Source of the DNA: Clostridiales bacterium
Lineage (GTDB): Bacteria; Bacillota; Clostridia; DUOD01
Assembly (NCBI GenBank): GCA_012838995.1
Contig: DUOD01000069.1
Coordinates: forward strand, 1-48,699
Direction: 5' to 3'
Length of the DNA stretch: 48,699 nt
Positions 27,704 to 29,770 of this stretch are shown in pieces. Each line of letters opens with the position of its first letter. Positions within the stretch are counted from its first letter, which is position 1. The notes beneath the pieces were generated by a model, which searched no databases, was not told the origin of the DNA, and saw only the letters and a program-made list of their open reading frames with translations. The position numbers and the translations under genes are program-made.

Positions 27704-29095
27704 ATGGAGAATTTAACTCCAAAAAAAATAGTGGAAGAATTGGATAAATATATAGTAGGACAGCACAGTGCAAAGAAGTCTGTTGCCATAGCTTTAAGAA
27801 ATCGCTATAGAAGAAGTTTGTTGCCAAAGGATATAAGGGACGAAATAACTCCAAAAAACATAATAATGATCGGTCCCACCGGTGTAGGCAAAACAGAAAT
27901 AGCAAGGAGATTGGCTAAACTGGTAAAAGCACCCTTTATTAAGGTTGAAGCGACAAAGTTTACCGAGGTTGGGTATGTAGGCAGGGATGTGGAGTCAATG
28001 GTCCGGGATCTGGTAGAGGCTTCCATACGAATGGTAAAAAGTGAAAAAATAGAACAGGTTAAGGACAAAGCAAAGGTAATGGCAGAAAACAGGATAGTTG
28101 ATGAGTTGATGCCCTATAGAAAAAGGTCGACAGCGGCACGCAATCCATTAGAAATGTTCTTTGGCAGTACCGTAGATGGTCAGGCGAAGGAAGACAAAGA
28201 TGAGGAGATGGAAAAGAGACAAAAAAGGGCTGAAATTCTGGCAAAGCTTAGGCAGGGCCTATTGGAGGATACCTACATTGAAATAGAGGTGGAAGATACC
28301 AGCACTCCAACCATAGAAATGTTTACAGGTATGGGTACGGAAGAGATGAATATTAACATACAGGATATATTCGGAGGTTTGTTTCCAAAGAGAAAGAAAA
28401 AAAGGAAACTTACTATAAGGGAAGCCAGAAAAATTATCGAACAGGAAGAAGCCCAGAAGTTGATTGACATGGATGAGGTCATAAGCCAGGCTATTACCCG
28501 TGCCGAGCAGGACGGTATAATTTTTTTAGATGAAATTGATAAAATAGCCGGCAAGGAAATGGGTGCAGGACCGGATGTTTCCAGAGAAGGCGTACAAAGG
28601 GACATACTGCCCATAGTTGAGGGCAGTACGGTAATGACTAAATACGGACCGGTAAATACCGACTATATATTATTTATTGCGGCAGGGGCTTTTCATATTT
28701 CAAAGGTTTCGGACTTAATCCCCGAACTTCAAGGCAGGTTCCCTATAAGGGTGGAGTTGGACAGTTTATCCAAGGAGGATTTTAAGAATATATTGACTCA
28801 GCCGCAAAATGCAATAATCAAACAATATACGGCACTGCTACAAACCGAGGGCATAAACATCACTTTTACCGAAGATGCAATCGATGAAATAGCAGAAATT
28901 GCTTACCTAATCAACAGTACCCGTGAAAACATCGGAGCCAGGAGGCTTCATACCGTAATGGAAAAACTAATAGAAGACATCTCGTTCAATGCTCCGGATA
29001 TTGAACAAAAGGATATTAAAATAGACAGGGACTTTGTAAAAACCCATCTTAGGGAGAGTATCAAAGAAAACGATCTTAGCAGATTTATTCTATAA
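27704..29095 (+). CDS. hslU: HslU (ClpY) ATPase subunit
   Basis: HslU unfolds substrates for HslV. The 463-residue AAA+ protein begins with the [17 protein letters not shown] segment, has Walker [10 protein letters not shown] at 57-65 and Walker [10 protein letters not shown] near 274, a variable intermediate domain between them (about 110-230), and the C-terminal sensor-2 region [10 protein letters not shown] with the terminal LSRFIL tail that inserts into HslV. AAGGAGG precedes ATG 27704. The following region has lost the gene expected there (codY). Confidence 0.97.
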
Positions 29096-29131
29096 TAATT
29101 TAAATTGATAAATAACGAGGAATAAAAAATT

Positions 29132-29378
29132 TTGACTGTTGCCAAAGTAAGGAGATTAAATAATATATTGCAAATTATCGCCGGTCAGCCAAGCCCAGTA
29201 AAATATGGCCAAAAAGCTTGTATAAGTGACGACCAAAAATATCTTTGCAGCTCAATATTGTAGTCACGGTTTCGGCAAAGAAGGGGGGTAAAGGGTTAGG
29301 GTTATCAATTGCCAACAGATCGGCCGATGAAGTATAACAATAATACCCGTTACAGTGGGTGCTTTAAAAAGGTTTTGA
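29132..29378 (+). pseudogene. codY: Decayed codY (GTP/branched-chain amino acid-sensing regulator)
   Basis: Three short reading frames occur in codY order. Frame 1 (29132-29260, then TAG) has KVRRLNNILQ and AGQPSPVKY, like the CodY N-terminus. Frame 2 (29254-29334, then TAA) has NIVVTVSAKKG and GKGLGLSIAN, like the CodY segment around NVYIVSRRGKILGYS. Frame 3 (29331-29375, then TGA) has SITIIPVTVGALKRF, like the TTIVPI..GERLG core of the GAF domain. About 50 codons between fragments 2 and 3 and the whole C-terminal helix-turn-helix are gone, apart from a possible nine-residue trace near 29403-29429. GAGG at 29117-29120 may be the old ribosome-binding site. The location between hslU and flgB is the usual codY site in Firmicutes. 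Similarity was judged by eye. Confidence 0.65.
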
Positions 29379-29393
29379 AAGCTTAAGCATAAT

Positions 29394-29420
29394 GTAAGTA
29401 CATCTTTGATTTGTATTTAC
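29394..29420 (+). repeat. Small inverted repeat in the codY remnant region
   Basis: GTAAGTACA (29394-29402) can pair with TGTATTTAC (29412-29420) over nine positions with one G-T pair and a 9-base loop. No direct T-run follows, so it is a weak terminator candidate at best. Confidence 0.4.
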
Positions 29421-29450
29421 AACGTTAAATGACAATTTTTTGTTTTTTAA

Positions 29451-29476
29451 TAATTAAAGTCGTTAATTAAAGTCGT
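29451..29476 (+). repeat. 13-bp perfect tandem repeat
   Basis: TAATTAAAGTCGT occurs twice head to tail (29451-29463 and 29464-29476). It could be replication slippage in decaying DNA or a paired protein-binding site; nothing in the sequence decides between them. Confidence 0.75.
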
Positions 29477-29498
29477 TCAAACAATAAAGGTTTATAAA

Positions 29499-29543
29499 AT
29501 TATTTAATAAAAAAGTAGCTCAGCTACTTTTTTATTAAATAAT
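29499..29543 (+). terminator. 22-bp bidirectional terminator palindrome
   Basis: Bases 29499-29520 are the perfect reverse complement of 29522-29543, with a GTAG-CTCAG-CTAC tip and A6/T6 tracts in the arms. It should stop transcription from hslU and the former codY, and isolates the flagellar operon. Confidence 0.85.
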
Positions 29544-29770
29544 ATGTATTCGGTTACATAATATATATACAGATAGTGACTTTATTGTAACTTTTTAATC
29601 ATTGATTTAAATTTTCAAAGAAAATAAATTTAGTAATTTAGCACTATACAATTATTGATACAAGGTCTTATATAATCTAATGTGATGGTATATATTGTTA
29701 TAGGCCTACATATTAAATAAAAAAACTATTAAATAAGGTTTTTGGTATTAATAAATAATAAACAAAATTT

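What the first reader, a model, noticed from the sequence alone, without database searches (positions are those of the whole stretch)
29132..29378. A decayed codY gene at the expected hslU-flgB position
The sequence shows three successive frames, each ended by a stop (29261, 29335, 29376), whose translations resemble CodY segments in the right order: KVRRLNNILQ with AGQPSPVKY, then NIVVTVSAKKG with GKGLGLSIAN, then SITIIPVTVGALKRF. In Bacillus and many Clostridia codY lies exactly between hslU and flgB. CodY represses flagellar, competence and amino-acid genes in response to GTP and branched-chain amino acids. If this copy is dead and no other exists, the flagellar cluster beside it has lost that control. 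The matches are by eye and each fragment is short, so chance resemblance is possible.
Basis: partly seen in the sequence, partly recalled or inferred. Interest (0 to 1): 0.78.

Follow-up and report, generated by a model that had tools for sequence, protein, structure and literature searches.

The report
Decayed codY relic between hslU and flgB
Between hslU and flgB lies the broken remnant of codY, a master nutrient-sensing repressor gene: its first codons and traces of its DNA-binding end survive, its sensor middle is gone, and no working copy was found elsewhere in the genome, which makes this a real but fairly ordinary case of regulator loss.

Summary
The three stop-terminated frames are exactly where stated. 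A frameshift-aware profile test, domain by domain, finds the CodY N-terminus at 29132-29206 (57.2 half-bits; 0/500 shuffles and 0/641 control tiles reach it). It finds the CodY helix-turn-helix at 29274-29394 more weakly (49.2; 2/500 and 2/276). The effector-binding (GAF) middle is not detected (81/500), and the reverse strand is empty. 26 codY-less genomes at the same place score no higher than 37.4.

'GKGLGLSIAN' and 'TVGALKRF' fit the C-terminal HTH ('EGLLVASKIADRV', 'VIVNALRKF') better, so roughly 160 codons are missing internally.

No CodY was found elsewhere in this 98%-complete genome. In an HslU tree its sister families mostly have intact codY there. One genome (G190) is caught mid-decay with a similar internal deletion; three others have lost the gene, leaving hslU-flgB.

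No closer relative is held, so timing cannot be tested. Loss of flagellar control is inference: no CodY box is enriched here, and that control is disputed even in B. subtilis (PMC4793158).

The parts
27704..29095 (+). hslU (clpY), intact upstream neighbour
   Evidence: ORF of 463 aa, 57-69% identical to HslU in 75 class relatives
29117..29122 (+). GAGGAA, remnant-like ribosome-binding site of codY
   Evidence: read from the sequence, 9 nt before TTG 29132; codY of relatives has AGGAGG at this place
29132..29206 (+). CodY N-terminal remnant, LTVAKVRRLNNILQIIAGQPSPVKY; its frame ends at TAG 29261
   Evidence: 57.2 half-bits, 0/500 shuffles, 0/641 tiles
29274..29334 (+). first half of the CodY HTH: GKEG, a GGGTTA-like repeat of about 16 nt, then GLSIANRSADEV matching GLLVASKIADRV; TAA at 29335
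   Evidence: ungapped segment 30.3 half-bits; HTH test 49.2, 1/500 and 2/639
29349..29394 (+). recognition-helix remnant VTVGALKR(F)ESLSIM matching VIVNALRKFESAGVI, one frame change at the TTTT of 29373-29376
   Evidence: best DNA alignments to intact codY 3' ends fall here too
29425..29442 (+). possible C-terminal tail LNDNFL matching LNDKLL (tentative; lies in AT-rich DNA)
   Evidence: 31.6 half-bits, not significant alone
29500..29542 (.). 20-bp inverted repeat, terminator-like on both strands; probably ends the hslU transcript
   Evidence: pattern scan, 2 found against 0.3 expected; single copy in the genome
29869..30282 (+). flgB, intact downstream neighbour, first gene of the flagellar cluster
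   Evidence: ORF of 137 aa; homologues follow codY in ten relatives

Best explanation
29132 to about 29394 (perhaps 29460) is a unitary pseudogene of codY. The ancestor had hslU-codY-flgB. In this lineage the gene lost roughly 160 codons between the start of the N-terminal domain and the HTH, and collected stops, frame changes and a small GGGTTA expansion. No effector-binding domain and no continuous HTH can be made from what is left, so the product does nothing; the flanking genes run from their own signals. Shown: the position, the N-terminal match, the broken frames, absence of another CodY in a 98% complete genome. Supported but weaker: the HTH match. [quoted passage not shown]
For: N-terminus 0/500 shuffles and 0/641 tiles; HTH 2/500 and 2/276 on the whole rest of the interval; middle at chance; reverse strand empty; 26 codY-less genomes at the same place at most 37.3 (N-term) and 37.4 (HTH) against 57.2 and 49.2 here. 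Collinear whole-interval score above all controls. No PF06018 or PF08222 elsewhere. HslU tree: sister (89/97) of families f20, f21 and f23, where codY follows hslU and, in the genomes of these families examined with flgB nearby, precedes flgB. G+C 0.39 in 29132-29380, as in hslU (0.405) and flgB (0.391), dropping to 0.21 beyond. Parallel case: G190 codY with a deletion from profile 54 to 191 plus a frame change.
Against: Plain HMMER and Pfam find nothing significant in the single frames. The N-terminal core is only ten residues; in the whole window with the whole profile one unrelated tile scored slightly higher (54.7 against 52.3). DNA-level similarity is weak: 20/300 shuffles at the 5' end, 131/300 at the 3' end. 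No relative nearer than class level is held.
Confidence: 0.88

Rival explanations
1. Chance resemblance: ordinary intergenic DNA between hslU and flgB, with a CodY-like decapeptide by accident.
For: HMMER alone is not significant; peptide matches are short; DNA similarity is weak.
Against: The match lies at the right place, strand and register behind hslU and scores above every shuffle and tile in the position test; a second, separately tested domain follows in the right order. The G+C of 29132-29380 is gene-like and drops sharply after it.
Confidence: 0.08
2. The stretch is a codY whose frames were broken by sequencing or assembly error in a draft genome.
For: The genome is a 70-contig draft.
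Against: An intact codY is about 780 nt; only about 250-330 nt are here and the whole middle is missing, which base errors cannot cause. The residues left are far more diverged than the neighbouring hslU (57-69% identity to relatives).
Confidence: 0.02
3. The 43-codon frame 29132-29260 is kept as a small functional peptide or leader.
For: It has a start codon and a GAGGAA sequence at fair distance.
Against: No Pfam or PDB relative; past codon 25 it no longer follows CodY; no relative to show conservation.
Confidence: 0.02

Closest known systems
codY (PF06018 + PF08222) in the hslU-codY-flgB arrangement of Clostridia-class relatives, e.g. G019, G022, G053, G108
   Same: place behind hslU, strand, distance, N-terminal residues, order of domains, flgB downstream
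   Different: middle domain missing, stops and frame changes; interval hslU-flgB of 773 nt against about 950-1330 nt in codY-bearing relatives
G190 codY (locus L110), a decaying codY in family f61
   Same: internal deletion that leaves the N-terminus and the HTH, with a frame change between them
   Different: far younger: both remaining parts are still close to consensus and the HTH part is an open frame beginning with ATG (PF08222 E 3e-33); flgB is not next to it
hslU-flgB intervals without codY in G082, G110, G156 (f23)
   Same: codY lost, flgB kept next to hslU
   Different: intervals of 407-576 nt with no significant CodY trace

Membership tests
codY gene remnant (pseudogene) | located where the functional orthologue lies in relatives | tested here: met
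   codY directly follows hslU in at least 32 of 60 loci fetched, with flgB after it in 10
codY gene remnant (pseudogene) | sequence similarity to the N-terminal part beyond chance | tested here: met
   57.2 half-bits, 0/500 shuffles, 0/641 tiles
codY gene remnant (pseudogene) | similarity to the HTH_CodY domain beyond chance | tested here: met
   49.2 half-bits, 2/500 shuffles and 2/276 tiles; moderate
codY gene remnant (pseudogene) | similarity to the GAF effector-binding middle | tested here: not met
   81/500 shuffles reach it; taken as deleted
codY gene remnant (pseudogene) | broken reading frame | tested here: met
   stops at 29261, 29335, 29376 and frame changes between the pieces
codY gene remnant (pseudogene) | neutral drift compared with close relatives | not testable with these tools
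   only genome of its order held
functional CodY protein | open frame with GAF domain and HTH (PF06018, PF08222) | tested here: not met
   no match over cut-off in the genome

The most novel reading that the evidence does not exclude
CodY decays by a repeated route in this class: the effector domain is deleted first, leaving for a time an HTH-only protein (as the open ATG-started HTH frame in G190 suggests) that may bind CodY sites without sensing GTP or branched-chain amino acids; the window shows a late stage of the same route.
Probability: 0.07. Interest if true: 0.5.

Novelty: new member of a known kind. Interest (0 to 1): 0.27.

Why it matters
CodY is the main GTP and branched-chain amino acid sensor of low-G+C Gram-positive bacteria. 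A datable remnant shows loss, not mere absence, in a lineage that keeps the flagellar cluster beside it. Together with G190 (mid-decay) and the three f23 genomes (gone), it shows that the gene was lost more than once at this locus, and gives a natural set for asking what replaces it. For one genome alone the result is modest.

Tried and rejected
Histidine-kinase ATPase G-box resemblance of GKGLGLSIAN: recalled from memory, no Pfam match. Permissive gap settings in the chain alignment overfit and were dropped. Rfam: only chance miRNA-type matches to the AT-rich hairpin 29497-29545, far below gathering scores. CodY box AATTTTCWGAAAATT: 4 matches with up to 3 mismatches against 6.3 expected, none in the hslU-flgB interval. 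FliF scan of genome contigs to find named relatives gave one distant hit at 33% identity. Literature: the codY, hslU and flgB terms together gave no paper; searches for codY pseudogenes and codY loss listed nothing on this kind of loss by title and abstract.

Full report
What is in the sequence. The window holds topA, trmFO, hslV, hslU (27704-29095), then 773 nt without a long open frame, then flgB (29869), flgC, fliE, fliF and further flagellar genes (gene names other than hslU, flgB and flgC are from my reading of the translations).

Is it CodY? I built a profile from 37 CodY proteins of the same class and wrote a frameshift-aware aligner with a flat cost for long deletions. Against the full profile, 29120-29460 scores 89.8 half-bits; 250 dinucleotide shuffles reach at most 65.9, 150 column-permuted profiles 65.5, and 282 tiles of this window on both strands 73.4. 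Testing the domains apart is cleaner. N-terminal columns on the first 165 nt after hslU: 57.2, none of 500 shuffles and none of 641 tiles. HTH columns on the rest of the gap: 49.2, 2 of 500 and 2 of 276. Middle (GAF) columns: 36.1, 81 of 500, i.e. nothing. Reverse strand: nothing. The same places in 26 genomes that have hslU but no codY give at most 37.3 and 37.4. The column and region bounds of the HTH test were chosen after seeing the match; the test on the whole rest of the gap does not have that fault.

How the pieces map. 29132-29206 reads LTVAKVRRLNNILQIIAGQPSPVKY against MxLLEKTRRLNKILQKSGTEPVVF. GKEG (29274) and GLSIANRSADEV (29299-29334) match GNEGLLVASKIADRV of the HTH, with about 16 nt of GGGTTA-like repeat between. 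VTVGALKRF (29349-29375), then after one frame change FESLSIM, match VIVNALRKFESAGVI. The best DNA alignments to intact codY 3' ends also fall on this stretch, although DNA similarity as a whole is weak. LNDNFL (29425) may be the tail. G+C is 0.39 in 29132-29380, like its neighbours hslU (0.405) and flgB (0.391), and 0.21 beyond, which fits former coding DNA that has not yet drifted far.

Is it dead, and is there another copy? The frames cannot give a continuous protein. PF06018 and PF08222 have no match over cut-off anywhere in the genome, which is 98.12% complete in 70 contigs.

Relatives. Of 391 class genomes sampled, 104 carry HTH_CodY. Among 60 loci fetched downstream of hslU, codY follows in at least 32, and flgB follows codY in 10. 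A HslU tree places this genome as sister (89/97) to families f20, f21 and f23, most of whose members have codY there, so loss in this lineage is the simplest reading; the tree rests on one protein. Loss recurs: G190 (f61) has a codY cut from profile position 54 to 191 with a frame change, its HTH part still open and starting with ATG; G082, G110 and G156 (f23) have only 407-576 nt between hslU and flgB and no significant trace. No genome of the same order is held, so drift and timing cannot be measured.

Consequences. CodY-type control is inferred to be absent. For motility the effect is uncertain: CodY has been reported to bind the flgB and hag promoters of B. subtilis, but a codY deletion had little effect on motility in other work (PMC4793158). 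codY directly upstream of the flgB locus was noted in Roseburia and Eubacterium (PMC3720852). No CodY box enrichment was seen in this window.

Verdict. Ordinary in kind, mildly interesting for repeated loss at one locus.

Noticed in passing
L110 (G190:C109:49500-53500), about 89-451 nt after the hslU stop: codY with the middle deleted (profile 54 to 191) and one frame change; the HTH part is an open frame of about 72 codons beginning with ATG, PF08222 E 3e-33.
   Followed up: partly
window 29500-29542: Perfect 20-bp inverted repeat with 3-nt loop, terminator-like on both strands, single copy in the genome.
   Followed up: partly
L119, L120, L121 (G156, G082, G110): Three f23 genomes have hslU and flgB 407-576 nt apart without codY, while other f23 genomes keep codY there.
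   Followed up: partly
window 29286-29304: Short GGGTAAA-GGGTTA-GGGTTA repeat inside the HTH remnant, probably slippage expansion.
   Followed up: no
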